A DNA stretch of 64,000 bases from a bacterium. Its GTDB lineage: Bacteria > Myxococcota_A > UBA9160 > UBA4427. Shown here in pieces: positions 39,038 through 53,077 of the stretch (positions within the stretch are counted from its first letter, which is position 1; each line of letters begins with the position of its first letter). Location: positions 434,001 to 498,000 of the forward strand of contig JANSYR010000002.1 of the NCBI GenBank assembly GCA_024742285.1, read 5' to 3'. A program made the position numbers and the translations under genes. Under the pieces are notes generated by a model. The model saw nothing but the letters and a program-made list of their open reading frames with translations. It did not search any database and was not told the origin of the DNA.

Positions 39038-39114
39038 GCCCCCGTAGCTCAGATGGATAGAGCGTCGGTTTCCTAAACCGTGCGTCGCAGGTTCGAGTCC
39101 TGCCGGGGGCGCCA
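39038..39114 (+). tRNA. tRNA-Arg (anticodon CCU)
   Basis: 77 nt including an encoded CCA (39112-39114). Cloverleaf: acceptor GCCCCCG/CGGGGGC, D arm GCTC..GAGC, anticodon loop TTCCTAA with anticodon CCT at positions 34-36 (reads AGG), and T arm GCAGG-TTCGAGT-CCTGC. The lowest pair of the anticodon stem (27-43) is a T-T mismatch. Its 3' 45 nt plus one further base form the integration core repeated at 48177 and, degenerate, at 51265. The gene stays complete because the integrated element restores the 3' end. Confidence 0.95.
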
Positions 39115-39115
39115 G
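39070..39115 (+). repeat. attachment core, copy 1 (attL, inside tRNA-Arg)
   Basis: 46 bp running from the tRNA anticodon loop to one base past CCA. It is identical over all 46 positions to 48177-48222. The bases just before differ by one position (ggT versus ggA), which marks the crossover limit. Confidence 0.93.
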
Positions 39116-39145
39116 GAAATCCAACACCTTAGGAGGAGCTTCTCG

Positions 39146-39907
39146 ATGTCCCAGCTGCCCGAGTTGGCGGATAGTCTGCGAAAGCTCGCGGAATCGGGAA
39201 CAGACTATCGGCTCTCGCGAATGTTCCTCAATCTCATCTACGAGCGTGCTGTCGAGCTCGGGCTCGATCCGGCCGACTTCGAGATGGAGACCTACGTCCT
39301 TCACGGCGGCGGGGGGACAGAGATGCCGACCTTCCGACACCGGTGCACTCGGATGCGTCACGGGCCGACGGAAGGGTATTTCTCCTTCGGGCGCGGAATC
39401 GACGAGGAGGGGTGCTGGACCTACCCCTGTGAATGGTCGCCATCCCATCGTGAGCGGACCAACTTCGGTTCGCCGCCCGATCGCGAGACGCAGGTGCATT
39501 TCGCGACGGAGGATTGGCTTACCGCGATCAAGGTGGAGAAGGAGTCTCCGAATCTCTGGGAAGGGGTTCAGCTAGCGATCGAGGCCTCCGCAGGTTCCGA
39601 AGGTCCGAACGAGCTTCTTGGGGTGGACGCGCGAATTGCATTCGCCAAGGACCTTGATGCGATTCAAAGCGACTTCGAGGAACGGTTCGCCGAGTCTCAG
39701 AGTGCGATCGACGATCTCCGAAAGGAGATCGACTTCCTGAAGGGGTCGACCCAAAGGCTGGGCTGGATCGATCTGAAACGATCCGCTGTCGCATCAGCGG
39801 TAACTCTCGGGATGCAACACGGCCCGGCCTTCGCCAGCGAACTGCTGCAGCGCATCCTTGCGGCGATCGAGCGCGTTCCAGAGCTGCCCGCTGGGATCGT
39901 GCTCTGA
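39146..39907 (+). CDS. element cargo protein of unknown function with coiled coil
   Basis: 253 aa from ATG 39146, preceded by AGGAGGAG about 8 nt upstream. No known domain recognised. The N-terminal half contains several Cys/Trp/His (CTRMRHGP, CWTYPCEWSPSH). Residues about 165-205 are a charged alpha-helical/coiled-coil segment (DLDAIQSDFEERF, then AIDDLRKEIDFL). The C-terminus is helical. No signal peptide or membrane segment. It sits directly inside attL, a position where satellites and islands usually carry accessory or defence cargo, and only 31 nt after the att core. Confidence 0.6.
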   Translation: MSQLPELADSLRKLAESGTDYRLSRMFLNLIYERAVELGLDPADFEMETYVLHGGGGTEMPTFRHRCTRMRHGPTEGYFSFGRGIDEEGCWTYPCEWSPSHRERTNFGSPPDRETQVHFATEDWLTAIKVEKESPNLWEGVQLAIEASAGSEGPNELLGVDARIAFAKDLDAIQSDFEERFAESQSAIDDLRKEIDFLKGSTQRLGWIDLKRSAVASAVTLGMQHGPAFASELLQRILAAIERVPELPAGIVL

Positions 39908-40061
39908 TCTTGCGGTCACGAAAGACGGCTTCGACCTGTCTGCGGCGCTAGCCGGTTTTCGCTCGACGACGTAGCCATGGCGGCCACACAGGCTCTCGGC
40001 TCGCCACGTCGGCCGGTCGCGCCGATCGCAGCGGCGTCGGAGATCGGCTGGGGAGGAGCAT

Positions 40062-40778
40062 ATGGGGAAGCAGAAGAGGCACGTCGGCCGATGCGTCTAC
40101 TGCGGCCACAGCGGAATGGTCACGCGAGACCATGTCCCGCCGAGAGGACTCTTCCCATCCGCGCTGCGTGGGGATCTTCCGATCGTGGATTCCTGCCGGG
40201 CCTGCAATCAGAGCTACGCACACGACATCGAATACGTGCGTGACTGCCTAGCTCTCGATGAGGACGTCGGCTCGACACCCTACGGCGTGGCTCTGTTCGA
40301 GGTCGCCCGCCGCAACGCTCGCCGCGGGTTCGGGCCGGCTCGAGGGCTGATCCGGGATGCGGAGCGCGTTGAGGTGCTCTCCCCGGAAGGCGTCGTCCTC
40401 GGCGAGCGGTTTCAGGTCGGTATCGACCGAGGCCGAATCCTGCACGTTGTCCGCCGCACCGTTCAGGGGCTTTGGGCGCACCATATCGGGCAGGTGCTGC
40501 CCCCGGAGCTGACTGTGAACTGCTGGATGGCTGGTGAGGTCGCCGACGTGGTTCTTGGCGAAGAGGAGCCTTGGATGTCGCTCCGCGAAGAGATCACGAG
40601 CGCGCCGCTCATGAGCCTTGCTAAGGGGGCCTTTGGCTACAGATTCGTGGTTGTTCCCGACCACAGTGAGGCATCGATCTGGTTCCTGCACTTCTACAGC
40701 GCGAAGACGTTCATCGGGATCACGCTCAACGAAGAAGTCGCGGAGGCGCGACGGCGGGAGCAGCGCGAGACTAGCTAG
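40062..40778 (+). CDS. HNH-type endonuclease-like protein (element cargo)
   Basis: 238 aa; ATG 40062 follows GGGGAGGAG by 4-5 nt. The N-terminus has a Zn-ribbon HNH arrangement: CVYCGHSG (about 12-19), RDHVPPRGLFP (about 23-33) and DSCRACNQSY (about 46-55), giving two CxxC pairs with a His/Asp-His centre. The rest (about 60-238) is an unknown alpha/beta domain. HNH proteins of this layout occur in restriction and other defence islands. It converges with the integrase, ends overlapping by 8 nt. A nuclease role is inferred from the motif only. Confidence 0.7.
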   Translation: MGKQKRHVGRCVYCGHSGMVTRDHVPPRGLFPSALRGDLPIVDSCRACNQSYAHDIEYVRDCLALDEDVGSTPYGVALFEVARRNARRGFGPARGLIRDAERVEVLSPEGVVLGERFQVGIDRGRILHVVRRTVQGLWAHHIGQVLPPELTVNCWMAGEVADVVLGEEEPWMSLREEITSAPLMSLAKGAFGYRFVVVPDHSEASIWFLHFYSAKTFIGITLNEEVAEARRREQRETS

Positions 40779-41937
40779 TGAGAGCAGCTTCCAGCGCCGC
40801 TGAAGCTTCTTCCTGCTGGCCGGGAAGCACGTGGGCGTACCGGTCGAGGGTAAAGGCGACTGTTGAGTGCCCGAGTCGCTCTGAGACGATCTTCGGGTTG
40901 ACGCCCGATTCCAGCAGCAGCGTCGCGCACGTGTGGCGGCAGTCGTACCAGCGGAATCGCTTCTTCAGGTCCTCGGGAAGCTCGGCGGCCTTCAGAATCG
41001 GTTTCAGGACCCGACGCGAGAGGTTCGAGTTCCGGATCGGCTCGCCGAGCTCGCCCGCGAACACGAAGCCGTGGTCGTTGTAGGCCCGCTTCAGCTTCAG
41101 GCGCCACGCGAGCTGCGCCCGGCGCCAGCCGCGCAGATCTGCGGCGATCGAAGCGGGTAGGGGGATCCTGCGGCGGCTGAGCCGCGTCTTCGGCTCGCCA
41201 AGCTTCCATATCTTCCCACGCTTCCCGGTCCGCTTGTCGGGCTTCCCGTCGATCCAGGCCAGCGACCGCTCAACGCAGACGACGCCGGCTTCGAGGTCGC
41301 AGTCGTCCCAGCGAAGCCCCTGGACCTCGCCGGGACGCATGCCGGTCGCCATGGAAAAGACGAACACGAAGCCGCGGGGGACCGACTTGGCGGCCTCGCG
41401 GAATGCTCGCGCCTGCGCTGCTGAGAGGGCCAGCATCTCGGTTCGAGACTCCCGGGGCGCCTGGACCCCGTCGACCGGACTCGTCGCGATGTATCCCCAC
41501 CTGACCGCCTGTCGGAGGGCCGCTCGCAGGACGGCGTGAGTGCGCCGGGCACCGTGCGCGCTCGGAAGTCCCTTCAGAAGCTGTTGGACGTCGATCGGCG
41601 TGACCTGGTTGAGCGGGCGCGCGCCGAGCGTCGCGCGAACCGGCTCGAGGAAACGCTGGTAGTCCTGGAGGGTCCGGGGCCTAACCCTGTCCTCGACCGC
41701 GTCCGAGATCCATCGATCGAGGTACTCGCTGAGCGGCAGCCGCGACGGCGTATGCAGCTCGCCAAGGTCGCGCTGCGTCAGCAGCTGCCGGAGAGCCTTC
41801 TCGGCGACCGCCTTCGTCCCATGAACTGTCTTCGACTCGTAGATCCGCTTTCCGGTGTCAGGATGGGTTCCGAGGTAGATCGTCACGAGCCACTTCTGGT
41901 CGCCGCGGCGCCGGATCTGACCGGAACGACGGCTCAA
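40771..41937 (-). CDS. int: tyrosine recombinase (integrase)
   Basis: 388 aa from TTG 41937, which overlaps the upstream stop (TTGA). N-terminal arm-binding beta region (QKWLVTIYLGTHPDTGKR), SAM-like core-binding domain (about 60-150) and catalytic domain with Arg in TGMRPGEVQG (about 198), HTCATLL (His/Arg box, about 328) and LGHSTVAFTLDRYAHV with the nucleophile Tyr (about 360). It should catalyse integration at the tRNA-Arg att core. It lies 1.7 kb from attL with cargo genes between. Co-transcribed with 41934-42755 and 42768-42962. Confidence 0.93.
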   Translation of the reverse strand: MSRRSGQIRRRGDQKWLVTIYLGTHPDTGKRIYESKTVHGTKAVAEKALRQLLTQRDLGELHTPSRLPLSEYLDRWISDAVEDRVRPRTLQDYQRFLEPVRATLGARPLNQVTPIDVQQLLKGLPSAHGARRTHAVLRAALRQAVRWGYIATSPVDGVQAPRESRTEMLALSAAQARAFREAAKSVPRGFVFVFSMATGMRPGEVQGLRWDDCDLEAGVVCVERSLAWIDGKPDKRTGKRGKIWKLGEPKTRLSRRRIPLPASIAADLRGWRRAQLAWRLKLKRAYNDHGFVFAGELGEPIRNSNLSRRVLKPILKAAELPEDLKKRFRWYDCRHTCATLLLESGVNPKIVSERLGHSTVAFTLDRYAHVLPGQQEEASAALEAALTS

Positions 41938-42755
41938 GCGGAAACCTCGCCCCGCGCGTCCGCCATCGCCTCGAGTGACTCCACGGCCGCGAACTGAAAG
42001 TCTCGGATGACGTCTTCGGAGACCATCTCGAAGTCGCCTCGCGCGACGTGTTCGCACAGAATCCACATCACGCGAGCGTGGTCGCGATGGCGCTCCTCCG
42101 TGGAGGTGCTGTAGCGGATGCGGACTCGCTGCCCATGGCACGCATCGAACGCAGCGGCCTGGAGCGCCTCGACGTCGTCGAGCAGGTAGTCGGCCTCGTC
42201 GTGATTGATGTCTGCCGCCCGGACGCGCACAGCGAGGGCCAGCCGTGACGTCGCAAACGAGATGAGATCGGCAGCAGTCGCCGCGCCGGGTTCCTCGTGG
42301 TCAGACGGCACTCCGAAATGGAGCTCGAGCTCGTGAAGACTGTCGTCTGCACAGCGATGATCCGCCGTCATGTCGTCGACGAGCATCCAGTCGAGCTCGT
42401 CGATGATCTCGGAGGCGATTCTGCAGTCCGGACGGTTCTCGAGGCTCGCGAGACCGTGTGCGCGGTTTGCGATCTGCGCCCGGAGTAGTGCGACAGACTG
42501 CGGGTCCCCGGCCACGATGAACTCGACCGTGCCGCCGTCGGCGGTGATTCCCGCAGCCGAGCGAAGTGCGTCGGCGTCGGCCAGGAGGGCGCGGACCTGG
42601 TCGCACAGCCAGTCATCCTCCGCGAGGAACGCGCGAGCGAGCGCCATGCGTCTTCGAGCTCGGGCCTCGAGCCACTCAACCGGCGACGACCGGTCGATCG
42701 TGTCGCGTTCTTCCACGCCGAGCTCGAGCTTGATCACATGGCAGTCCGTTCGCAT
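41934..42755 (-). CDS. element protein of unknown function
   Basis: 273 aa; ATG 42755 preceded by AGGAAGGGG. Predicted mostly helical and acidic, with no recognised domain, signal or membrane segment. It overlaps the integrase start by 4 nt and begins 12 nt after the small regulator-like gene, so it belongs to the integrase operon. Trp-rich (EWLEARARR, DDWLCDQV, ELDWMLVDD), perhaps for protein contacts. Confidence 0.55.
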   Translation of the reverse strand: MRTDCHVIKLELGVEERDTIDRSSPVEWLEARARRRMALARAFLAEDDWLCDQVRALLADADALRSAAGITADGGTVEFIVAGDPQSVALLRAQIANRAHGLASLENRPDCRIASEIIDELDWMLVDDMTADHRCADDSLHELELHFGVPSDHEEPGAATAADLISFATSRLALAVRVRAADINHDEADYLLDDVEALQAAAFDACHGQRVRIRYSTSTEERHRDHARVMWILCEHVARGDFEMVSEDVIRDFQFAAVESLEAMADARGEVSA

Positions 42756-42767
42756 GGATTCCCCTTC

Positions 42768-42962
42768 CTAGCGCCGCATCCTCCGCAGGTGCCGTCGCAA
42801 CAGGTCCGCGACGTAGGCCGCGGGAGCCGTGTCGCCCGCGAGATCTGCGAGCTCTCTCGCCTCTGATTCCGTCAGCGAGATCATGATGCGCCGGTCGCGG
42901 CGCTGGTCAGAGGGGATGGGCTTGCGGCCCGCCCCCGGTCGTTTTCCACCCTTGGGAGACAA
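42768..42962 (-). CDS. small DNA-binding-like protein (ribbon-helix-helix type)
   Basis: 64 aa from TTG 42962; AGGAG lies 6 nt upstream, which decides the start. A basic N-terminus (KGGKRPGAGRKP, an AT-hook-like GAGRKP motif) is followed by IMISLTESEARELADLAGD and a helix, matching the beta strand-helix-helix size of RHH proteins. It is the first gene of the integrase operon, and an inverted repeat (42973-42999) lies immediately upstream, so autoregulation is likely. Confidence in DNA binding is moderate. Confidence 0.6.
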   Translation of the reverse strand: MSPKGGKRPGAGRKPIPSDQRRDRRIMISLTESEARELADLAGDTAPAAYVADLLRRHLRRMRR

Positions 42963-42972
42963 TACGAACTCC

Positions 42973-42999
42973 TATGAATTCCTGCAACTTTCATTCATA
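42973..42999. promoter_or_regulatory. inverted repeat, likely operator of integrase operon
   Basis: TATGAAT (42973-42979) and ATTCATA (42993-42999) form a perfect 7-bp inverted repeat with 13 nt between centres of the arms' inner ends. It is AT-rich in GC-rich surroundings and lies 10 nt upstream of the start of the RHH-like gene, overlapping the place for its promoter and ribosome site. Arm size and location fit an operator for a small dimeric repressor. Confidence 0.55.
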
Positions 43000-43145
43000 A
43001 AGGACGAGCGCGTGTTGCTTTGGCGCGGGCCTCGCTTTGGTGTCGTGCTCCTCGCGCCACCGGCGGCAACTTCGCGGAGCCGGCGCGCGGCGCGGCGGTA
43101 GACTGCGACGCGAGCCGACTCGAACGTCCGAGCCTCGAGCAGAGG

Positions 43146-44474
43146 CTACGGAGCGATACCGTCGATCACCACCATGTGGCTGGGCCGAGCGATGATCATG
43201 TCTGCGCGGAGGTAGGCGCGGATCAGGACGCTCAGCGTCGAGAATCCCAGCCCCGACGCGGCGTCGGTTGCCTCGCGCGAGATCTCGATCGTGAGGCGGG
43301 TGCGCATCCCGACGAGGACCTCGTTGAAGACACCCACGTACGCCTCTGACGCGGCCGTCTCCGTGCCGTGCGTCAGATCGATCGGCACCTGGCCCGACGA
43401 GAAGCGCCGCATCTGCTGCCAGCTCTCCGGGCCAGCATTCGATAGGTAGCGTCCATTCCCATCCTTCTGGCGATCGATCTGCCCCCACGTTCGCGGAGCG
43501 TAGATTGCCGAGATCTGCCCTCGGCCGTTCGCCGATCGGACCATCTCTGCGGCTTGGCTGAAGTCGTCGAGATCGATCGCTGCGCCGTTCGTGCCGAGGT
43601 CGAGGATCTGGACCCCGGTCGTTCCCCGGATCCCCAGCATCTCGGCGCCCGAGCCCGAGCCGCGAAGGAGTCCGAGGTCTAGCGCGAGCCCGAGAGACTC
43701 GGACAGCGAACGCTGCACGACGTCGCCAGCGTTCGGCGAGTCCTCGATCAGCTCGACACTCATCGGCGTCATAGCCACGAGCGTCTTGGCCGTCAGTGTC
43801 TTCGGCCCGAACGCGACGTCCGAGGCGGTGATCGGTGCGTTCTCCGCGTGCCACTCGGACGTCGCGTCCGCCGTGACAGCGGCGAGCTTGAGCGTCGACG
43901 ATTCCATCGGAAGGGTTCGCGCTCCGGCTCGAAGGACCTGGCTCTCGTTTCGCGAGAGATCGATCACGGCATTGGACAGGGGCTCCGGCACGAGGTGACC
44001 GCCAGCTGCGTCGACGCTGACCGTCATGGCGCGCTCCTCGGCCTCGGCGCCATGCCAGTTCCCCGTGACGAGACCTCGCAGATAGCGACCGAAATCGAGA
44101 TCCGACGGCCGGATACCGTCCGGCAGGTTCGGTTCGCAAACGTCCGAGAGCCGCTCCGACGGCGCCAGGCTCCGGACTTGGTTGCCGTTCATGTCGCGGT
44201 ACACGACGCCGCCACGGTCCTCGAGCTCGTTTGACCGAGGGGTTCGGTCGAGCGCGCCGAGGAGGCTATCTCGAGTGGCTGACTCGAGGCGCTCGATCGT
44301 CGTCATCATCCCCTCGGCGGCCTGTGTCACGTGTTCGTAGCGCTGCTCTTCGTCGGCTGAGAGCTTTCGCTGTTCACTCTCCGCTCGGTCGAGGATCTCG
44401 CGAGCGGACTCGATCAGCTCCATTCGTTCCGCCCTGAGGCGCTTGGCTTCCTGTGCGATCTGAACCATGGACAT
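43146..44474 (-). CDS. HK97-family phage major capsid protein
   Basis: 442 aa from ATG 44474. The N-terminal about 100 residues are charged coiled coil (LRAERMELIESAREILDRAE), the delta/scaffold domain of HK97-type capsid precursors. The rest shows family blocks: GGHLVPEPLSN (about 170-180), TLPMESSTLKLAAVT, WHAENAPIT, TAKTLVAMTPMSVELIEDS, LLRGSGSGAEMLGI and a C-terminal YLRADMIIARPSHMVVIDG. It would form the icosahedral shell. No protease, portal or terminase gene accompanies it. The gene is monocistronic-looking, with 235 nt upstream that carry an 18-bp direct repeat and 183 nt downstream. Confidence 0.92.
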   Translation of the reverse strand: MSMVQIAQEAKRLRAERMELIESAREILDRAESEQRKLSADEEQRYEHVTQAAEGMMTTIERLESATRDSLLGALDRTPRSNELEDRGGVVYRDMNGNQVRSLAPSERLSDVCEPNLPDGIRPSDLDFGRYLRGLVTGNWHGAEAEERAMTVSVDAAGGHLVPEPLSNAVIDLSRNESQVLRAGARTLPMESSTLKLAAVTADATSEWHAENAPITASDVAFGPKTLTAKTLVAMTPMSVELIEDSPNAGDVVQRSLSESLGLALDLGLLRGSGSGAEMLGIRGTTGVQILDLGTNGAAIDLDDFSQAAEMVRSANGRGQISAIYAPRTWGQIDRQKDGNGRYLSNAGPESWQQMRRFSSGQVPIDLTHGTETAASEAYVGVFNEVLVGMRTRLTIEISREATDAASGLGFSTLSVLIRAYLRADMIIARPSHMVVIDGIAP

Positions 44475-44571
44475 GGTTTGCCCTTTCGAGCAACGCCGGG
44501 CGCGACACGGAGCTACAGAGCACCGCAATCCATCGCCAAGCGTCGCTTGCGTTGAGGATTCGATCTCCGGA

Positions 44572-44666
44572 GTTCCGCGCTGGGGATACTCGTTCGAGCG
44601 AAGTCGTTTTCTATCTGTTGGGGTTCGATCGGCGACGGAGTCGTCGGCGTTCCGCGCTGGGGATAC
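44572..44666. repeat. two 18-bp direct repeats upstream of the capsid gene
   Basis: GTTCCGCGCTGGGGATAC occurs exactly at 44572-44589 and 44649-44666, 77 nt apart, in the 235-nt space between the capsid gene and 44710. Shorter similarity continues on both sides. They may be binding sites for an element regulator, or a replication or packaging signal; only two copies are present. Confidence 0.6.
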
Positions 44667-44709
44667 GCGTCTCGATCGTGATTCCAACGTACTGCAGGAT
44701 CGCGGGGAA

Positions 44710-45027
44710 TCAACTTGCGAACCTCTCGATTCCGACCGCGGCGATTTCAAGCTGCAGCAGCTTGCAGAGATAGATCGCCCAGACGTTCCCGGGCGTTTCG
44801 ATGAGCGAAGCCTCCGCACGCTCGACTGCGAAATAGATCGCCTTCATGTCTCGCTCGGAAGCGCCCTCGAGGTCGAGTTCAAAGCTCGTGATCGACCGGT
44901 CCCGACGCTCGAGCACGTCGACGAGCGCTGAGCAGAGATCTCCGTCGGACGGGTAGTCGGTCAGCGAGCTGATGAGGGCCGAGATGCCGGCTCGTTCTAC
45001 TCGCGCGAGATCGACGTCAATTCGCAT
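44710..45027 (-). CDS. small element protein, unknown function
   Basis: 105 aa; ATG 45027 lies within the end of the upstream gene (11-nt overlap). Predicted alpha-helical and acidic, with no recognised motif. Part of the run of overlapping genes from 47102 to 44710, so probably co-expressed with the ATPase and HNH-like protein. Confidence 0.5.
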   Translation of the reverse strand: MRIDVDLARVERAGISALISSLTDYPSDGDLCSALVDVLERRDRSITSFELDLEGASERDMKAIYFAVERAEASLIETPGNVWAIYLCKLLQLEIAAVGIERFAS

Positions 45028-45388
45028 AGCCGAGCTCCCCGCGCTCGACGTGCTCGAAGATCGCCCAGTGGGTGTGGATCTCGAGCAGGTGCACGAAGAG
45101 CAGCGCGAACTGCGCCGTTCCGTACCTCCCTCGGATCTCCTGGCGCGCGAGCTGCAGCACTTCGAGCGTCGCCCGCAAGGCGTCGGTTTCGACGACGTCG
45201 AGCGAAAGATCCACCCCGAACGGGTCCACGAGACCGTCTGTAGGGCCGCTCTCGAGACCGCCCATCACGCGGAGCTGCCTTTCGAGCTCGCGAACCGGCA
45301 GAGTTGACGGAGTCAGCCGCGCCAGTGTCTCCAGGAGCAGCGCCGTCGGTGCGCGCTCCAGTTTTCGCATCGAGAAGATGATCGTCAT
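45017..45388 (-). CDS. small element protein, unknown function
   Basis: 123 aa; overlaps the HNH-like gene by 4 nt upstream and the next small gene by 11 nt downstream. Mostly helical, Leu-rich, acidic; no recognised motif. Similar in size and predicted fold to its neighbour at 44710-45027, but I see no convincing sequence similarity between them. The tight overlaps show it belongs to the phage-like transcription unit. Confidence 0.5.
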   Translation of the reverse strand: MTIIFSMRKLERAPTALLLETLARLTPSTLPVRELERQLRVMGGLESGPTDGLVDPFGVDLSLDVVETDALRATLEVLQLARQEIRGRYGTAQFALLFVHLLEIHTHWAIFEHVERGELGYAN

Positions 45389-45978
45389 CGCGTGTTTCTC
45401 CCGTGTGTCGCTTCGACTTTTGAACCCGTCCCCATCTCTCCGTCCCCACCCCCCGCGGTATCGGTCCCCTCAGGCTGTAGAGATTTGACCGCCCCTCCCG
45501 GTGGCGGCGGATGTCCGATCAGCGCGCGCGTCGATTCGCGGGGGACCGAAGTCGGAGACACGCACTCGCCGCGAGGCGAGGCGCGGGCCGCGCGGCATGG
45601 AGCGCACAGCGGCGTGAGGCTCGCGATCACCTCGCTCAGATCGACCGCATCGCCGCCAGCGAACTCGACGTGCGTCGCTGGCTTCTGGCGGCACTCTCGA
45701 CACATGGGGTCGAAGGCGAGGAGGGCGCGCCTGGCGGTGCGCCAGTGAGTACCGGATCTGATGGGGCCGGCGGGGGGGCGGTTCGACGCCGGTCGTATGG
45801 GGGGAGGGGGAGGGTCCGGCTGGCATGTGCGGTGGCCCGCTACCGCCCCCTGGCACGGTTGTCCCTCATCCAACATTTCCAGGGGGTTACGGTATAAGCG
45901 TGTGGCACGGTTGGACTGGTTGGGAGGGCCGGCGAGAGGCGAGCGTGCCAACCGTGCCAGCTGGGCCACGCGCGTCAT
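45385..45978 (-). CDS. degenerate HNH-endonuclease-like protein
   Basis: 197 aa from ATG 45978, which overlaps the ATPase stop by 4 nt and has AAGGGGG just upstream; an in-frame ATG at 46005 has no such site. The middle reads LLAFDPMCRECRQKPATHV and later LTPLCAPCRAAR, the two CxxC pairs of phage HNH proteins. The catalytic His-Asp-His stretch expected after ATHV is not recognisable (EFAGGDAVDL), so it may be inactive or only structural. The flanks (Pro-rich N-terminus, Gly-rich C-terminus) look disordered. Phage HNH proteins usually support DNA packaging near terminase genes, which are absent here. Confidence 0.6.
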   Translation of the reverse strand: MTRVAQLARLARSPLAGPPNQSNRATRLYRNPLEMLDEGQPCQGAVAGHRTCQPDPPPPPIRPASNRPPAGPIRSGTHWRTARRALLAFDPMCRECRQKPATHVEFAGGDAVDLSEVIASLTPLCAPCRAARASPRGECVSPTSVPRESTRALIGHPPPPGGAVKSLQPEGTDTAGGGDGEMGTGSKVEATHGRNTR

Positions 45979-47102
45979 GACGCCCCCTTCCGTTGGTACT
46001 GCCATCGCCCGTCGCTGCGCTTCTTGCTCTCGACGCCAGCCGCGTCCTTCGCGCGCTTCACCGTTCGCATCGAATGCCCCGCGGCTTCGGCGGCTGCCTC
46101 GACGTCAGCTGACAACACCGGGCCTTCCGCGACTAGATGGCGCAACCACTCCGTTGCGCTCTCGCGCGCGGGCGCCGGCACCGGCCGATTGACGCTGCCG
46201 ATGATCTCGTCCGCGTCCCATGAGACGCGCCCGAGCCAATCGACTCGTGAGGTATCACCCGCCGGCCCCTCGACAGATGCGATTCGGTAGCCGAGCGACT
46301 GGGTCTGCATGGGCGGCGCGAGATTCGACTTCGTGACTGCGAGGACTCGGCGATCGCCATCGTCGGGGTCGGTGCCGGCGACGAGGCCAGAGCGCGCAGT
46401 CCCGATGATCGCGATCGAATCCGTCCCGCGATAGAGCGCCCGGCCGTTCTTCACGTCCTTGTTGAGGTGCCGCACGAGAACGACCGCGCAGCCCGTGTCG
46501 GAGGCCGCTCGCTTGATCCGGCTCATAGCCTGCGCCGTCGACTGTGTGTTCTTGGTCCTGGTCGAGGTGCCGGCGAACGTCGCGAACGGGTCGACGATCA
46601 ACAGCTGCGCGCGCAGGTAGGCGATCGTCGCGATGAGCTCGTCCGTCGCGTCCACGACTGAGGGCAGTCCATCGTCCATGTCGATGACGTGAACGCGCTC
46701 GAGGTCTGCGCCGGCCGCTTCGACTCGCGGGCGAATCGTGTCGTCGGGGTCATCCTCTGCGGTCATGATGATGACGTCGCCCTGCGAGCCCTGGGAGCCG
46801 TCAGGCATCGAAGCACCGCTCGACACTCGGGCGGCGAGGTCTGCAAGGATGGTCGACTTTCCGACCCCAGGGTCGCCGTCGAACGTCGTGATCTTCCCGA
46901 GCGGGATGCGGCCTGGCCAAAGCCACTGGACGGCCCTCGGCGTCACGTCGGCGAGGCGCGTGGTCGAGAGCGGCGGCGCGACGAGCACTGCTGGTGACGC
47001 CGAAGGCGTCGTTCCGCAGAGGTCGTGGATCGCCCCGACCCGATCGTCGAGCGAGTCGCTCAGCGCGAGCGTTTCGAGAGGTGATCGGGTCGCCGACTCC
47101 AC
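45975..47102 (-). CDS. RepA/RecA-like AAA ATPase with C-terminal winged-helix
   Basis: 375 aa from GTG 47102 (ribosome site weak). Residues about 45-260 form a RecA-like ATPase of the AAA_25/RepA type: GDPGVGKST Walker A (about 76-84), MTAEDDPDDTIRPR, LLIVDPFATF Walker B (about 145-154) and VVLVRHLNKD (about 187-196). The C-terminal about 70 residues look like a helix-turn-helix. Such proteins act as replicative helicases or loaders in plasmids and satellites, so it probably drives replication of the excised element. It lies 12 nt downstream of the AlpA-type gene. Confidence 0.85.
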   Translation of the reverse strand: MESATRSPLETLALSDSLDDRVGAIHDLCGTTPSASPAVLVAPPLSTTRLADVTPRAVQWLWPGRIPLGKITTFDGDPGVGKSTILADLAARVSSGASMPDGSQGSQGDVIIMTAEDDPDDTIRPRVEAAGADLERVHVIDMDDGLPSVVDATDELIATIAYLRAQLLIVDPFATFAGTSTRTKNTQSTAQAMSRIKRAASDTGCAVVLVRHLNKDVKNGRALYRGTDSIAIIGTARSGLVAGTDPDDGDRRVLAVTKSNLAPPMQTQSLGYRIASVEGPAGDTSRVDWLGRVSWDADEIIGSVNRPVPAPARESATEWLRHLVAEGPVLSADVEAAAEAAGHSMRTVKRAKDAAGVESKKRSDGRWQYQRKGAS

Positions 47103-47114
47103 GCGCGACCGATC

Positions 47115-47324
47115 TCAGCCAACCGTCGATCGAGACTGGCTGTGCGTCGGATCGGCCGTCGGGCCACCCTCTCGAATCCACTTCTCGAGCTCGGACTCGG
47201 AGAAGCGAACGGTTCGCCCGAAGCGCACCGACGGGATCTGCCCGAGGCGTGCGAGCTCATAGACGCGCCAGGTGCTCGATCCGAGTAGCTCGGCGACCTC
47301 GTTGGCCCTGAGTAGCTTTTCCAT
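47115..47324 (-). CDS. AlpA/excisionase-type MerR-like regulator
   Basis: 69 aa from ATG 47324; AGGAGG lies about 10 nt upstream. The sequence LLRANEVAELLGSSTWRVYELARLGQIPSVRFGRTVRFSESELEKWI (given here only as blocks: VAELLG helix, WRVYELARLG recognition helix, PSVRFGR wing, LEKWI) matches the AlpA/excisionase domain. Such proteins activate integrase or excision and early genes of satellites and prophages. It leads the transcription unit with the ATPase. Confidence 0.9.
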   Translation of the reverse strand: MEKLLRANEVAELLGSSTWRVYELARLGQIPSVRFGRTVRFSESELEKWIREGGPTADPTHSQSRSTVG

Positions 47325-47444
47325 CGCTGGTGTCCTCCTCGCTAGCTGCGACGAGGGCACTATGCGTGAGAGCGACGGCGATCACCCGGGCAGACAACGT
47401 GCGGGGATACATGCCTGCCCGAACGAGCGCAGGCGACGCAGACC

Positions 47445-48071
47445 CTAGGTACCGGAGGTCCGCGCGGGAAGGCTGAAGAAGCCGGGCTCCCCCGCCTTAG
47501 GTCGGTGCACCTTGAGGTAGGCGATGCAGGCGTCGGTGCTTGCGAACCCGAACTCCCGTGTCGTCGATTCGATCGCTTCACGCGGCGTCAAGCGTCGGCG
47601 CCGGCGGTCGGTCAGCCGCTGGAGCTCACCCATCTGACTCAGGTAGAACTCGATTACTGCGCAGGAGTCCTTCGGTGGACGGCCACCCGCGACATCGCCC
47701 CTGGCGACTCCGGCGATTCGCGCCGCCTCCGCGGTCGTTGGTGCCTGGCGCGCACGGCGGAAGGCCTCATCCCGCCGCTCCACGGCCTCGCCGCGCGGCA
47801 ACCAATGTGCCGCGAGGGCGAGTGCTTCTGCAAGCGCCTCGAGGTCTCGATGCTCGACGGTCAGCGCGCGCAGCTCGTCCGCAGCCGCGTCGGGATCTTC
47901 GAAGGTGAGGTCGTTGAGGAGCTCGTCGACGCGCGTTCGCAGCCTCTCGATCTGCTCGGTTCGGGCCTCTTCGGAGCCCGGTCTCGAGCTGGGCGGGTCC
48001 AGCGAGAGCGGTGCCGAGCGCCGGTCGGCATCGCCTGAGTCAGTCTGCGAGTCGTCTGCGAACTCCGCCAT
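47445..48071 (-). CDS. element protein of unknown function
   Basis: 208 aa from ATG 48071. A disordered, acidic N-terminus (1-40) is followed by a helical region (about 38-125) and a basic segment (DRRRRRLTPREAIE, about 150-163), then a small C-terminal domain. The layout (helical part plus basic patch) would suit a nucleic-acid-binding or regulatory protein, but no family is recognised. It is the rightmost gene of the element, about 105 nt inside attR, and 120 nt upstream of the AlpA gene. Confidence 0.5.
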   Translation of the reverse strand: MAEFADDSQTDSGDADRRSAPLSLDPPSSRPGSEEARTEQIERLRTRVDELLNDLTFEDPDAAADELRALTVEHRDLEALAEALALAAHWLPRGEAVERRDEAFRRARQAPTTAEAARIAGVARGDVAGGRPPKDSCAVIEFYLSQMGELQRLTDRRRRRLTPREAIESTTREFGFASTDACIAYLKVHRPKAGEPGFFSLPARTSGT

Positions 48072-48176
48072 CCGGACCCAACGATACCCAAACTGGCCCA
48101 GTCGGCGGATCAGGAAATCCGAACAAGTTCAACGGCTACCCATCGCGCCCAATCTGCGCTCATGGCTTGGACCGGA

Positions 48177-48222
48177 TTCCTAAACCGTGCGTCGCAGGTT
48201 CGAGTCCTGCCGGGGGCGCCAG
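48177..48222 (+). repeat. attachment core, copy 2 (attR of the capsid-bearing element)
   Basis: 46 of 46 identical to 39070-39115. It reproduces the 3' part of tRNA-Arg but lacks the 5' half, so it is not a tRNA gene. It also forms the left boundary of the adjacent TIR-FtsK segment. Confidence 0.93.
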
Positions 48223-48339: not shown

Positions 48340-50430
48340 TCAACGCTCGGGGCTGTGAATCGTCACAAGCCGCCCCCGCGAGCCCCGCGTCGGCCCGACG
48401 AGGCCATTAGCTTCCATCTCGCGTAAGATCCTCGAAGCTCTGTTGTTGCCGATTCCGAGCTCGCGTTGAAGTGCTCCGTTGGTAATCGTCTCCCGGCGTG
48501 AAGCGAACTCGACGGCGCGGACGTAGTCTTCGTCAGTGTGTTCCTCGTCCGGGCCGAGCGCGACCTCTAGCGTCGGGCGGACTCTCAAGAGATCGACCAG
48601 CGACCGCGCTTGCGCCGAGGTGACGAGCGGCGTGAGTACGCGTTGGAGAGATGCCGCACCCGGCTTCCGAAGCAAGAGGTCGCCGAACGGGAGTAGTTCC
48701 TCTGCGCCGTTCTGGTCCAGGACTGTTCTGGAGTCTTTTCTCGACGCCACGTGAAAACACGCTCTGGCTGGAAAGCTCGAACGGATTGCGTCGGTCAGAA
48801 CTGTCGTGCGTGTCGACTGAGTGAAAAGAAGTAGATGGATGCCGACCTCTCTCCCCATCTGTGCGATCTGCGGCAACAGCTCCTCCGCAGTGCGCTTGGA
48901 CTTCGCGACGATCGGAGTCAGCTCAGAGATCACTACGACCAAGAACGGCATCGGGTCGCCCTTTACGCTGTGAGCGGCCGCACCACGAGATGCTCGGCTG
49001 GATCTGAGTGCGCGGTTGAACTCGCCCAGCCCTCCGACGCCAGCGTCCCTCAGCCTGGACTGCCGTTCTTCTATCTCGGAGACAACCCACCCCAGGGCAC
49101 CGAGAGCCTCCTCTGGATGTCGAACGACGTCTCCAACAACGTGGGGCGCCTCTTGATAGACGCCGAGGTCCAATCCGAGCGGGTCGAGAAGGACGAGCCC
49201 AAGCTCGTCAGGCGCACATCGGCAAAGCAATGTGCAGAGGACTGCGTGGAGGAGGGTCGATTTGCCCGTGCCCGTCGCCCCGGCAACCAAGAGGCCGGGC
49301 AGCTCGGCGAGGTCAAGGCTCTGAGTGACTCCAATGGTGTCCTGTCCAATCGCAATGCTGAGCTTGGATTCCACGTTTGCGAACGACTTCGATTCCAGGA
49401 TTTCTCGGAGATGAATATCTTCGCGCTCGTCGTTCGGAAGGCGGATGCCCACAACTGCCTTGCCTGGTAGTGGCGCGAGGATTTCGATGGCCGGCGCTCG
49501 AAGAGCGAGAGCAAGATCGCTTCGGTAAGTTGCGACCTTGTTGACCTTGACGCCTGCGGCGGGCTCATACTCATACATGGTGAAGACCGAGCTCGGGTGG
49601 ACTCGGACGACACGGCCGGCGATAGCGAAGTCCGCAAGCTTCTTTTCGATGATCTTGGAGTTCATCAGGAGCGAGTCTCGGTCGTAGGATCGTTCCGGAT
49701 GCGGGTCGGCGAAGATGGAAAGTGAGTCATTCACGCCCGGTGCAAGTGCGATGTCTGCCGCTCCGGAGTCTCGGTTACTACGTAGTCGCTCAGCTTCTCT
49801 GCCCAGCCAGGCATCGCGAGCCGCGGCGAAGGCGCTTTGGGCGCGGAGCAGTAGGGGTTTGCGAACTGGCGATTGGGTCGAGTCCGCACGTTTGGCGCTG
49901 GATGTCTCGAGGTTCCATGGCGACGGCGGGACGTCGCTTGCCTGTGAGGTGTGTGCAGGCCCCATTGACCCGAGTTCCTCGAGCCGGCGGAGCAGTTGGT
50001 CCGCGTCCGTCCCGAAGCTCACGTGCCTCAGCTCGGCGCATTGGATCGACGACATCGGCCAGAGCGAACTGGGCAGGTCGGAGCGCCTCGGCATCTGGGT
50101 ACCTCCCACGAGAACGGGAAGGACTGTGATGTTCGACTCCAAGCCGCGCTCGATCTCGATGCGGACGTAGTCGGTGGCGTCGTCAATGCGCCGGTGGGGA
50201 GAGTCGCGAGACCGACCTTCCCAGCGTGGCCCGATAACGACGAGCATCAGTTCAGATTGAGCGACCGCCTGTTCGACGACGTCAAGAAAGTCGACGCCTG
50301 GGGGGATCGTCGCGTCCACATCCATGAAGACTCGCTCGGCGTCTCCTAGATAGTCGACCAGTCGATCGTAGAGACGGCCGGCGTGCCCGGCGTCCTCGCG
50401 GCGATAGCTGATGAATATCTTGGAGATCAT
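48340..50430 (-). CDS. TIR domain - FtsK-type DNA translocase fusion (putative defence protein)
   Basis: 696 aa, ATG 50430. Residues 1-150 are a bacterial TIR domain: KIFISYRRED (4-13), VFMDVDATIPPG (34-45), LMLVVIGPRW (61-70), a candidate catalytic Glu in DYVRIEIERGL (Glu92 or Glu94) and VLPVLVGG (103-110). A variable linker (150-240) leads to an FtsK alpha/beta region (about 255-335). The FtsK/SpoIIIE motor follows (about 345-600): GATGTGKS Walker A (384-391), LLDPLGLDLGVYQEAPHVV, LLFTQST (535-541) and KDSRTVLDQNGAEELL (565-580). The Walker B reads FLVVVISEL, with Ser502 where FtsK has Asp. Residues about 633-690 form a winged helix like FtsK gamma. TIR domains commonly cleave NAD or signal; the motor may sense foreign DNA. 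No partner gene is seen. Confidence 0.88.
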   Translation of the reverse strand: MISKIFISYRREDAGHAGRLYDRLVDYLGDAERVFMDVDATIPPGVDFLDVVEQAVAQSELMLVVIGPRWEGRSRDSPHRRIDDATDYVRIEIERGLESNITVLPVLVGGTQMPRRSDLPSSLWPMSSIQCAELRHVSFGTDADQLLRRLEELGSMGPAHTSQASDVPPSPWNLETSSAKRADSTQSPVRKPLLLRAQSAFAAARDAWLGREAERLRSNRDSGAADIALAPGVNDSLSIFADPHPERSYDRDSLLMNSKIIEKKLADFAIAGRVVRVHPSSVFTMYEYEPAAGVKVNKVATYRSDLALALRAPAIEILAPLPGKAVVGIRLPNDEREDIHLREILESKSFANVESKLSIAIGQDTIGVTQSLDLAELPGLLVAGATGTGKSTLLHAVLCTLLCRCAPDELGLVLLDPLGLDLGVYQEAPHVVGDVVRHPEEALGALGWVVSEIEERQSRLRDAGVGGLGEFNRALRSSRASRGAAAHSVKGDPMPFLVVVISELTPIVAKSKRTAEELLPQIAQMGREVGIHLLLFTQSTRTTVLTDAIRSSFPARACFHVASRKDSRTVLDQNGAEELLPFGDLLLRKPGAASLQRVLTPLVTSAQARSLVDLLRVRPTLEVALGPDEEHTDEDYVRAVEFASRRETITNGALQRELGIGNNRASRILREMEANGLVGPTRGSRGRLVTIHSPER

Positions 50431-50900
50431 CGCACTCGGTATCAGGTTGTCGTGCAGGGCGGGGGCACCGAAGAGGCCGTAGCGAAACTAGCGCTACTAC
50501 CCAACCGCGACGAGTCCACTGGATTTGGACTGATCGGTCGAATCTTGCCGATGCGCTTGGGTAAGCAGGTCGAGTCGGGGGGGGAATAGATTCGCGAGTC
50601 GCCAAGACCACGCTTCCGATCATCGCTTTCGGATGGGGTCAGCAATTGAGTCCGGCGCGAATGGAGTGCCGAAGGTGGTGGGGAGGTGGTCGTCTTGGAT
50701 CATTCCGCCCAACGTTCCAAACGACGAGCGTCGGGGGACGAGCGACCTGCCGACCACGATCATGATTCGAAGGTCTTTCGGGCGGTATGCGAAGGCCGTG
50801 TTCGAGCCGATCGTGAACTCGTGCGGGCCGGCGGTCGGACGCCAGGTCGGCTTCGGATGTCTCTCCGATCCCCAAGGAGGAATCGAAGAGCATCTGGAGA
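50431..50900. other. gene-free stretch upstream of TIR-FtsK
   Basis: 470 nt with short frames but no convincing gene. It should contain the promoter for the leftward TIR-FtsK gene. A leftward frame at 50639-50893 and one at 50620-50925 show no recognisable family or good ribosome site, so I treat the stretch as decayed island DNA. Confidence 0.4.
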
Positions 50901-51032
50901 AGCCAAGGCTACGCACGCCCGACACAGGCGCTGGAACTCGACGAGGTCGACCGTCCGAAGTCGTTCGCGGGACAGGTGCTGATCCGCGTTCGGGCGATGA
51001 TGATCAATGCGAACGACATCGACGGCTGTTGA
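50901..51032 (+). pseudogene. N-terminal fragment of a quinone oxidoreductase-like (MDR) gene
   Basis: One frame reads ALELDEVDRPKSFAGQVLIR and then VRAMMINANDIDG before a stop at 51030-51032. This matches the first about 45 residues of GroES-like quinone oxidoreductases (family pattern: lelxevxxPxxgxgeVLIrVxAaxiNxxDxxxG). No start codon or catalytic remainder is present, so it is a remnant, probably of a chromosomal or island gene cut by earlier insertions. Confidence 0.6.
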
Positions 51033-51264
51033 GGATGCCGAGCATCTTGGTGTGCCCAGAAGCGGTGGGGAAATCATGGATTCGAGACCTACGGTGTCCT
51101 CCGCTGTGAGTCGGAGCGATCGCGGGTACGCGGGATCGCGGGAAGCAATCGTTGGGATCGTTCGGGTGCCTATTCAAGGCCCACTGCGACCAGGCCCTGC
51201 CCCACATGGCATGGTCAGTGCGCCAAGCAGCGCCCGAGGACTCCCCACACTCCGATCCCTTGGC

Positions 51265-51310
51265 TTCCTAGGTGGTGCATCGGAGGTTCGAGTCGTGTCG
51301 GGGGCGCTGG
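51265..51310 (+). repeat. degenerate attachment core, copy 3
   Basis: Aligns without gaps to the 46-bp core with 36 identical positions; the T-arm segment (AGGTTCGAGTC) and the acceptor CGGGGGCG are kept. The mismatches cluster at the anticodon-side stem and a few single bases. It looks like an old, mutated tRNA-Arg 3' end left by an earlier integration. Confidence 0.75.
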
Positions 51311-51781: not shown

Positions 51782-53077
51782 ATGCCGCGGACCGCCGAGT
51801 CAGTGAACGTCGATTCCGGACCGCTCGAAGCGCCCACACGCGCGCCCGACGCGATCGCCGAGTGGGTCGATCGGCACCTGCACGGGCTGATGGGCGACGA
51901 CGCGGCGGCGTCGCCTCGTTTTCGGGGCGGCCAGGCAGCCGCGGACGAAGCCCTCGAGCGATTCGACGTCGGGGGCTACGCCTCGAAGCGCAACGTCGTC
52001 GAGCCGGCGCAGGCGCGCGGTGCGTCCGGTCTCTCGCCGTGGATCCGGCACGGATACCTCCCGCTGACGCGAGTGTGGGGCGCCGTCGAAGGCGGGCCGC
52101 CGCGCGATGTGGCGAAGTTCCGGAGCGAGCTGCTCTGGCAGGAGTACGCGCGCCACCTCTACGCGAGGATCGGTCGCGCGAGTGGGCGTTCGCTGCGTTT
52201 CGCCGCGGTCGAGCGCGGGGCGGGACGGATGGGGGCGCGGGCGTCGGCCGGGATGGCGTGCATCGAACGCCTGCGCGACGAGCTCCACCGCGACGGCTGG
52301 ATCCCGAACGCTTCGCGGATGTGGGTCGCGTCCCATTGGAGCGTGCGCGGGCAGGGCGGGTGGCGCGACGGCGAGGATCGCTTCTTCCAGCATCTGCTCG
52401 ACGGCTCCCGGGCGGCGAACCGACTCGGCTGGCAATGGACGGCCGGGGCGCAGACGGGGCGCCTCTACACGTTCGAGCGCGGTCAGGTCGAGCGGCAGGC
52501 ACCGGATTGGTGCCGCGATTGTCCGCGGAACGGCGACTGTCCGATCGAAGGGGCGCCGAATGTCGAGGCTCCGGTCCATGCGGCGATGCCGGCCCCGGGG
52601 CTGGGTCGCGTGCGCGACGCGAGGAGCGGAGCCGGGCCGTCGGCGGTCGTCGATCGAGGCGAGCCCGAGGCCGTCTGGCTGACGGCCGAGTCGCTCGGGC
52701 ACGCGGATCCGGCGCTCGCGGCCCATCCGGAGCTCCCGGTCGTCTTCGTCTTCGATCGCGGGCGTCTCGCGAGATGGCGGCTCTCGCGAAAGCGCCTCGT
52801 CTTTCTCGTGGAGGGGCTCGCCGAGCTGGCGGAGCATCGTTCCGTCGCGCTCCACGTCGGGGATCCCGCGCGGGTCCTGGCGGGGCGCCCGCTGGCCGCC
52901 ACCCATGCGCCCGTACCCGGCTGGCGATTCCTGGCGACGCGACTCGAGATCGCGCAGGAATACCCGTGGCCGTGGCTGGTGGCCCCGCACGCCGGCTCCA
53001 TCGGGTCGTTCAGCGCCTGGAGGAAGAAGATCACACCGCCGAGGTCGAGTGGTCCGCAGCAGGACCTCGGGCTCTAG
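51782..53077 (+). CDS. circularly permuted photolyase/cryptochrome-like FAD protein
   Basis: 431 aa. The C-terminal FAD-binding half of ordinary photolyases comes first here: FRGGQAAADEALERF (47-61), ASGLSPWIRHGYL (81-93), RSELLWQEYARHLY (114-127), DGWIPNASRMWVASHW (171-186), WRDGEDRFFQHLLDG (194-208) and NRLGWQWTAG (213-222). After a Cys-bearing linker (Cys244, 247, 253) comes a segment resembling the photolyase N-terminal alpha/beta domain: AVWLTAESLGHADPALAA (297-314), LPVVFVFDRGRL (318-329), SRKRLVFLVEGLAEL (335-349) and LHVGDPARVL (357-366). This is the reverse of the canonical order. It may repair UV damage or sense blue light; residues for DNA-lesion binding cannot be judged by eye. 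Confidence 0.82.
   Translation: MPRTAESVNVDSGPLEAPTRAPDAIAEWVDRHLHGLMGDDAAASPRFRGGQAAADEALERFDVGGYASKRNVVEPAQARGASGLSPWIRHGYLPLTRVWGAVEGGPPRDVAKFRSELLWQEYARHLYARIGRASGRSLRFAAVERGAGRMGARASAGMACIERLRDELHRDGWIPNASRMWVASHWSVRGQGGWRDGEDRFFQHLLDGSRAANRLGWQWTAGAQTGRLYTFERGQVERQAPDWCRDCPRNGDCPIEGAPNVEAPVHAAMPAPGLGRVRDARSGAGPSAVVDRGEPEAVWLTAESLGHADPALAAHPELPVVFVFDRGRLARWRLSRKRLVFLVEGLAELAEHRSVALHVGDPARVLAGRPLAATHAPVPGWRFLATRLEIAQEYPWPWLVAPHAGSIGSFSAWRKKITPPRSSGPQQDLGL

What the first reader, a model, noticed from the sequence alone, without database searches (positions are those of the whole stretch)
48340..50430. TIR domain fused to an FtsK/SpoIIIE-type DNA translocase
One intact 696-aa gene joins an N-terminal bacterial TIR domain (KIFISYRRED, VFMDVDATIPPG) to a complete FtsK-like module (Walker A 384-391, KDSRTVLDQNGAEELL) ending in a gamma-like winged helix. 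TIR effectors are known with STING, Argonaute (SPARTA), SAVED and NLR-type sensors, and HerA/FtsK-fold ATPases pair with SIR2 and other effectors. I know of no characterised system in which TIR and an FtsK motor are one protein. Its place in a tRNA-linked island supports anti-phage or anti-plasmid defence: the motor could engage invading DNA and trigger NAD loss. Function is inference.
Basis: partly seen in the sequence, partly recalled or inferred. Interest (0 to 1): 0.93.

Follow-up and report, generated by a model that had tools for sequence, protein, structure and literature searches.

The report
TIR domain on a captured FtsK
One gene in this bacterium joins a likely NAD-destroying immune domain (TIR) to a copy of the cell's own chromosome-pumping protein FtsK whose motor has lost some key residues, which suggests a DNA-triggered cell-suicide switch, though only one example was found and its function is untested.

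Summary
The fusion is real: 48340-50430 (-), 696 aa, no stops. Pfam finds TIR_2 (5-145), FtsK_alpha (242-333), FtsK_SpoIIIE (341-539) and FtsK_gamma (631-691). The TIR keeps the conserved glutamate, E92 (not E94). The motor is closest to housekeeping FtsK of the same genus (48-49%, against 30-36% in plasmids and phages). FtsK homology starts exactly at the alpha domain, so TIR plus a linker replaces the membrane anchor: a captured cellular FtsK. Walker A, the catalytic Glu, the TQ sensor and the Arg finger remain, but the Walker-B Asp is Ser502, the DNA-gripping Arg and its switch Asp are lost, and one KOPS-reading residue is changed. The gene sits alone between the second and third copies of a tRNA-Arg(CCT) 3' end, outside the neighbouring integrase/capsid element, with no defence genes beside it. 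I found no second TIR-FtsK in about 380 genomes of the phylum, 72,556 plasmids or 50,697 phages; wider scans were weak. Best reading: an ATP/DNA-assembled FtsK ring that clusters TIR NADases for abortive infection. Published parallels are HerA-FtsK capture systems and Sir2/DUF4297-HerA. Function is inference from one example; an orphan chimera remains possible.

The parts
48340..50430 (-). TIR-FtsK fusion gene, 696 aa
   Evidence: one open frame; four Pfam domains
49996..50418 (-). TIR_2 domain, residues 5-145
   Evidence: Pfam 1.9e-10; 35-45% identity to TIRs of the same phylum; a weak single-sequence model still matches TIR-STING and SARM1 best
50155..50157 (-). E92, putative NADase catalytic glutamate (DYVRIE)
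   Evidence: invariant in 10 aligned TIR_2 sequences
49723..49995 (-). linker, residues 146-236, with no family match; stands in place of FtsK's membrane anchor and linker
   Evidence: FtsK homology starts at residue 236-237 in same-genus comparisons
49432..49707 (-). FtsK alpha domain, residues 242-333; best conserved part
   Evidence: Pfam 3.5e-21; 66% identity to host FtsK over residues 242-340
48814..49410 (-). FtsK/SpoIIIE motor (beta) domain, residues 341-539
   Evidence: Pfam 6.8e-37
49255..49281 (-). Walker A GATGTGKST, residues 384-392
48922..48939 (-). degenerate Walker B VVVISE (498-503); the Asp present in at least 90% of 30 housekeeping FtsKs is Ser502, Glu503 kept
48358..48540 (-). 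FtsK gamma winged helix, residues 631-691; N663 and R667 kept, E1303 equivalent is R670
   Evidence: Pfam 1e-13; the only confidently modelled part, block-mean pLDDT 69-84 for residues 631-680
39038..39114 (+). tRNA-Arg(CCT), integration site
   Evidence: ARAGORN
48173..48222 (+). second copy of the tRNA 3' end (98%)
51261..51310 (+). third, decayed copy of the tRNA 3' end (76%)
   Evidence: 38/50 matches against 27-28 for the next best place in the window

Best explanation
A cytosolic, stand-alone chimeric effector. A lineage-own FtsK alpha-beta-gamma core was captured, and its membrane anchor was replaced by a TIR domain plus a linker. Shown by sequence: the domains, the conserved TIR glutamate E92, the near relationship of the motor to the class's housekeeping FtsK, and the partial loss of motor residues. 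Inferred: the gamma winged helix and the alpha/beta ring load onto DNA with altered specificity; ATP binding drives ring assembly rather than fast translocation; six clustered TIRs become an active NADase; and NAD loss stops phage or mobile-element propagation by abortive infection.
For: Four Pfam domains in one frame. E92 invariant among 10 TIR_2 sequences, while bacterial TIR NADase activity is reported to rest on one conserved Glu, and a TIR activity is enhanced by oligomerisation (PMC10937652). Motor 48-49% identical to same-genus FtsK, 30-36% to the plasmid and phage hits listed; placed inside the class's FtsKs in a tree rooted on Streptomyces, exact place open (92/85). Ring-building parts are best kept: alpha domain 66% identical to host FtsK against 41-46% elsewhere; Walker A K390, Arg-finger R527, E503 and TQ 537-538 kept (numbering from PMC9410874, PMC7321959). 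Translocation parts are lost: Walker-B Asp to S502 (E. coli D1121N is an ATPase mutant, PMC2680272), loop-II R632 to S539 and its partner D599 to P506. KOPS residue E1303 to R670 (PMC2533119). Precedents: HerA-FtsK domains repeatedly captured into defence, some from cellular FtsK with its alpha domain (PMC10853773); DUF4297-HerA rings activate their effector by assembly (PMC11291478).
Against: A single example; no ortholog to show conservation. No defence genes next to it. Reshaped residues could also mean decay. Nothing shows that the TIR cleaves NAD or that the protein binds DNA. Several basic residues near the lost ones could compensate (R541, R550, R564).
Confidence: 0.4

Rival explanations
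1. It is a working translocase-sensor: the motor runs on invading DNA and movement or stalling triggers the TIR.
For: Walker A, catalytic Glu503, Arg finger, TQ sensor, the second loop-I Arg (R568) and two of the three KOPS-reading residues of gamma are kept; nearby basic residues could replace lost ones.
Against: Walker-B Asp to Ser, loop-II R632 and D599 both lost, and 109 of 284 near-invariant housekeeping columns changed.
Confidence: 0.15
2. A one-off chimera left by duplication and recombination at a tRNA hotspot, with little or no present function.
For: No second example found; absent from 8 same-genus genomes; stands alone in its segment, with no other recognisable intact gene; active-site changes.
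Against: An intact 2.1-kb frame; codon position 2 identity to host ftsK is far above position 3 (0.69 against 0.39), so most divergence was under protein constraint; GC3 equal in both halves, so the fusion is probably not fresh; conserved TIR residues all kept.
Confidence: 0.25
3. A non-defensive DNA-segregation or element-maintenance factor in which the TIR serves protein-protein contact or signalling, possibly acting on the cell's own FtsK.
For: Motor close to the host's own FtsK, so mixed rings or competition for KOPS and XerCD are conceivable; near a mobile element.
Against: Lacks the membrane anchor needed for septal work; keeps the catalytic Glu, which a pure adaptor would not need; changed KOPS residue.
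Confidence: 0.2

Closest known systems
Housekeeping FtsK (alpha-beta-gamma DNA translocase)
   Same: All three C-terminal domains in order; 48-49% identity to same-genus FtsK
   Different: TIR plus linker instead of the membrane anchor; Walker-B Asp, loop-II Arg and KOPS Glu changed
HerA-FtsK capture systems, including DndH/SspH (PMC10853773)
   Same: A cellular FtsK with its alpha domain captured into a new context; PADLOC SspH models hit the motor
   Different: Those use nucleases, Orc/CDC6 or DndFGH partners; the TIR there is fused to Orc/CDC6, not to FtsK; no such partner genes here
SIR2-HerA and DUF4297-HerA defence complexes (PMC11291478)
   Same: A ring ATPase of the HerA-FtsK superfamily coupled to an effector; SIR2 is likewise an NAD enzyme
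   Different: Two separate genes; HerA not FtsK; SIR2 or nuclease instead of TIR
TIR NADase immune effectors (SPARTA, TIR-STING, SpbK, Thoeris ThsB)
   Same: TIR fold and conserved Glu; activation by assembly is common (own knowledge; PMC9402430 for TIR-STING filaments)
   Different: Sensor is Ago, STING or others, not an FtsK ring in any described system known to me; no partner gene here

Membership tests
FtsK/SpoIIIE DNA translocase | alpha, beta (RecA-like) and gamma domains | tested here: met
   Pfam
FtsK/SpoIIIE DNA translocase | Walker A, catalytic Glu, Arg finger | tested here: met
   K390, E503, R527
FtsK/SpoIIIE DNA translocase | Walker-B Asp and loop-II DNA-grip Arg | tested here: not met
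   S502 and S539 where at least 90% of 30 class FtsKs have D and R
FtsK/SpoIIIE DNA translocase | N-terminal membrane anchor of housekeeping FtsK | tested here: not met
   replaced by TIR plus linker; no membrane-domain match in Pfam
TIR NADase | TIR fold | tested here: met
   TIR_2 1.9e-10; low-confidence model nonetheless matches TIR structures best
TIR NADase | conserved catalytic Glu | tested here: met
   E92 invariant
TIR NADase | NAD cleavage | not testable with these tools
   needs an enzyme assay
HerA-FtsK capture defence system | captured HerA/FtsK domain | tested here: met
   motor nearest to own-lineage FtsK
HerA-FtsK capture defence system | linked defence partner genes (DndFG, Orc/CDC6, REase) | tested here: not met
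   none recognised among the neighbours scanned at 39-55 kb
SIR2-HerA type system | NAD effector plus HerA-FtsK ring ATPase | tested here: inconclusive
   analogous TIR plus FtsK in one protein, but different families of both parts
Thoeris | ThsA effector next to the TIR gene | tested here: not met
   TIR weakly hits ThsB/ThcB models; no ThsA-like neighbour

The most novel reading that the evidence does not exclude
A one-protein immune switch in which a captured cellular FtsK ring, freed from translocation, senses DNA by ATP-dependent assembly and activates six fused TIR NADases.
Probability: 0.3. Interest if true: 0.8.

Novelty: new variant of a known kind. Interest (0 to 1): 0.52.

Why it matters
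It would join two known defence themes, NAD-consuming TIR effectors and ring ATPases of the HerA-FtsK superfamily, in a single polypeptide. The captured part would come from the cell's own chromosome pump, showing directly how a housekeeping motor is turned into an immune sensor. The retained and lost residues give a clear test of whether assembly, not translocation, is what such ATPases contribute to defence.

Tried and rejected
IMG/VR scans with the protein, a TIR alignment and an FtsK alignment returned no relative at all, not even ordinary TIR or FtsK, so they are weak negatives. The genome-contig scan uses short exact peptides and returned only one Streptomyces FtsK: also a weak negative. 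Single-sequence AlphaFold of the full protein was uninformative apart from the gamma domain (mean pLDDT 36); that of the TIR was poor (51), so the Foldseek match is only supportive. Diagnostic residues could not place the capture at genus or family level (5 against 5 and 4 against 4), and the tree leaves the exact place open on a very long branch. An empty site was not shown: flanks are not syntenic in the closest relative. A misassembly or out-of-frame artefact was considered and rejected.

Full report
OBSERVATION. The gene at 48340-50430 (-) is one intact frame of 696 aa. Pfam assigns TIR_2 to residues 5-145 (1.9e-10), FtsK_alpha to 242-333 (3.5e-21), FtsK_SpoIIIE to 341-539 (6.8e-37) and FtsK_gamma to 631-691 (1e-13), all above the curated cut-offs. 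NCBIfam's best hit is DNA translocase FtsK (5.2e-73), and PDB FtsK chains match at 1e-76.

THE TIR. Aligned with nine TIR_2 domains from the same phylum (35-45% identity), the TIR keeps the family's invariant residues. Bacterial TIR NADase activity is reported to depend on one conserved Glu, and TIR activity on NAD-capped RNA to be enhanced by oligomerisation (PMC10937652). The relatives' TIRs sit on other partners (for example transmembrane segments, ankyrin-like repeats, a dynamin-like GTPase, a formylglycine-enzyme-like domain: my reading of the translations). None of the loci with a TIR hit contains an FtsK match. This TIR is the only one of its kind matched in its genome.

THE FTSK PART. 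Its best matches in 91 genomes of the class are housekeeping FtsKs, 48-49% identical in the genus and 42-49% further out. The plasmid and phage matches listed are 30-36% identical. In a tree rooted on a Streptomyces FtsK the motor falls among the class's FtsKs (92/85), with its exact place open because of a very long branch; diagnostic residues do not resolve it further. Homology to host FtsK begins at residue 236-237, the start of the alpha domain, so TIR plus linker stands where the membrane anchor was. This is capture of a cellular FtsK. The gene's GC3 (0.72 TIR half, 0.69 motor half) is below that of the neighbouring element (0.77-0.82) and of the two chromosomal neighbours measured in frame (0.86-0.92), and near-equal in both halves, so the fusion is probably not fresh.

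MOTOR RESIDUES. Compared with 30 class FtsKs, 175 of 284 near-invariant columns are kept and 109 changed. Kept: Walker A K390, the catalytic Glu (E503, Glu596 in Pseudomonas), the phosphosensor Thr-Gln (537-538), the Arg finger (R527, R620) and loop-I R568 (R661). Lost: the Walker-B Asp (S502), loop-II R632 (S539) and its switch partner D599 (P506). Roles of these residues are from PMC9410874 and PMC7321959; an E. coli D1121N allele is used as the Walker-B ATPase mutant (PMC2680272). In gamma, of the KOPS-reading N1296/R1300/E1303 (PMC2533119), N663 and R667 are kept and E1303 is R670. Identity to host FtsK is 66% in alpha, 44-46% in beta and 41% in gamma. The pattern keeps ring building and nucleotide binding and loses parts of translocation and KOPS reading. 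That reading is inference; nearby basic residues (R541, R550, R564) might compensate. Codon positions 1/2/3 agree with host ftsK at 0.58/0.69/0.39, so most of the divergence happened under protein constraint.

SETTING. tRNA-Arg(CCT) at 39038-39114 has a 98% copy of its 3' end at 48173-48222 and a decayed 76% copy at 51261-51310; the latter scores 38/50 where the next best place in the window scores 28. The first interval holds a 9-kb phage-satellite-like element: tyrosine integrase, HTH/AlpA-type excisionase, AAA_25 replication ATPase, HNH proteins and an HK97-type capsid protein. The TIR-FtsK gene lies alone in the second interval. The same tRNA carries extra 3'-end copies in two sister species, so it is a reused hotspot, but their cargo looks metabolic rather than defensive (my reading). 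Neighbouring genes give only weak hits to PADLOC models (HNH-type and a P-loop). The 3-kb segment is absent from eight same-genus genomes apart from ftsK and tRNA-end similarity.

SEARCH FOR A FAMILY. No TIR-FtsK fusion was found among 72,556 plasmid and 50,697 phage records (no place covering 80% of the query), in 91 genomes of the class with the full protein, or among TIR hits of 379 genomes of the phylum (the further class searches returned no new hits). Scans of IMG/VR and of the 85,000-species collection rest on short exact peptides and are weak negatives. Literature searches found no TIR-FtsK or TIR-HerA term.

COMPARISON. The nearest published frame is 'HerA-FtsK capture': defence-linked neighbourhoods have repeatedly taken HerA/FtsK domains, some from cellular FtsK with its alpha domain; there a TIR is fused to Orc/CDC6, not to FtsK (PMC10853773). 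Coupling of an effector to a HerA ring with activation by assembly is shown for DUF4297-HerA (PMC11291478), and SIR2-HerA is the NAD analogue. This protein works like these if the inference holds, but it is a member of none by the tests run here.

VERDICT. A real and unusual fusion. The identity of its parts is about 95% certain; the assembly-switch NADase model about 40%. The interest is capped by the single example, the absent defence neighbourhood and the lack of any functional test.

Noticed in passing
39115-48222: Phage-satellite-like element between two tRNA-Arg 3' copies: integrase (40771-42141 -), HTH_17/AlpA excisionase (47115-47360 -), AAA_25 ATPase (45975-47102 -), HNH proteins and an HK97 major capsid protein (43146-44819 -); no terminase or portal was seen among the proteins scanned.
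   Followed up: partly
L068 (G001:C77) 2989 and 6185; L069 (G002:C289) 191 and 1463: tRNA-Arg(CCT) is a repeatedly used integration hotspot across the genus, with tandem 3'-end copies bounding short cargo segments that look metabolic.
   Followed up: partly
50880-51030 (+): Apparent remnant of a zinc-type alcohol dehydrogenase or quinone reductase N-terminus upstream of the TIR-FtsK gene; identified by eye only.
   Followed up: no
51782-53077 (+): Protein with a DNA-photolyase FAD-binding domain (PF03441, 4.9e-11) just beyond the third tRNA copy.
   Followed up: no
L049 (G304): A TIR domain on a long frame (866 aa) that reads like a dynamin-like GTPase, in the same phylum; another unusual TIR partner.
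   Followed up: no
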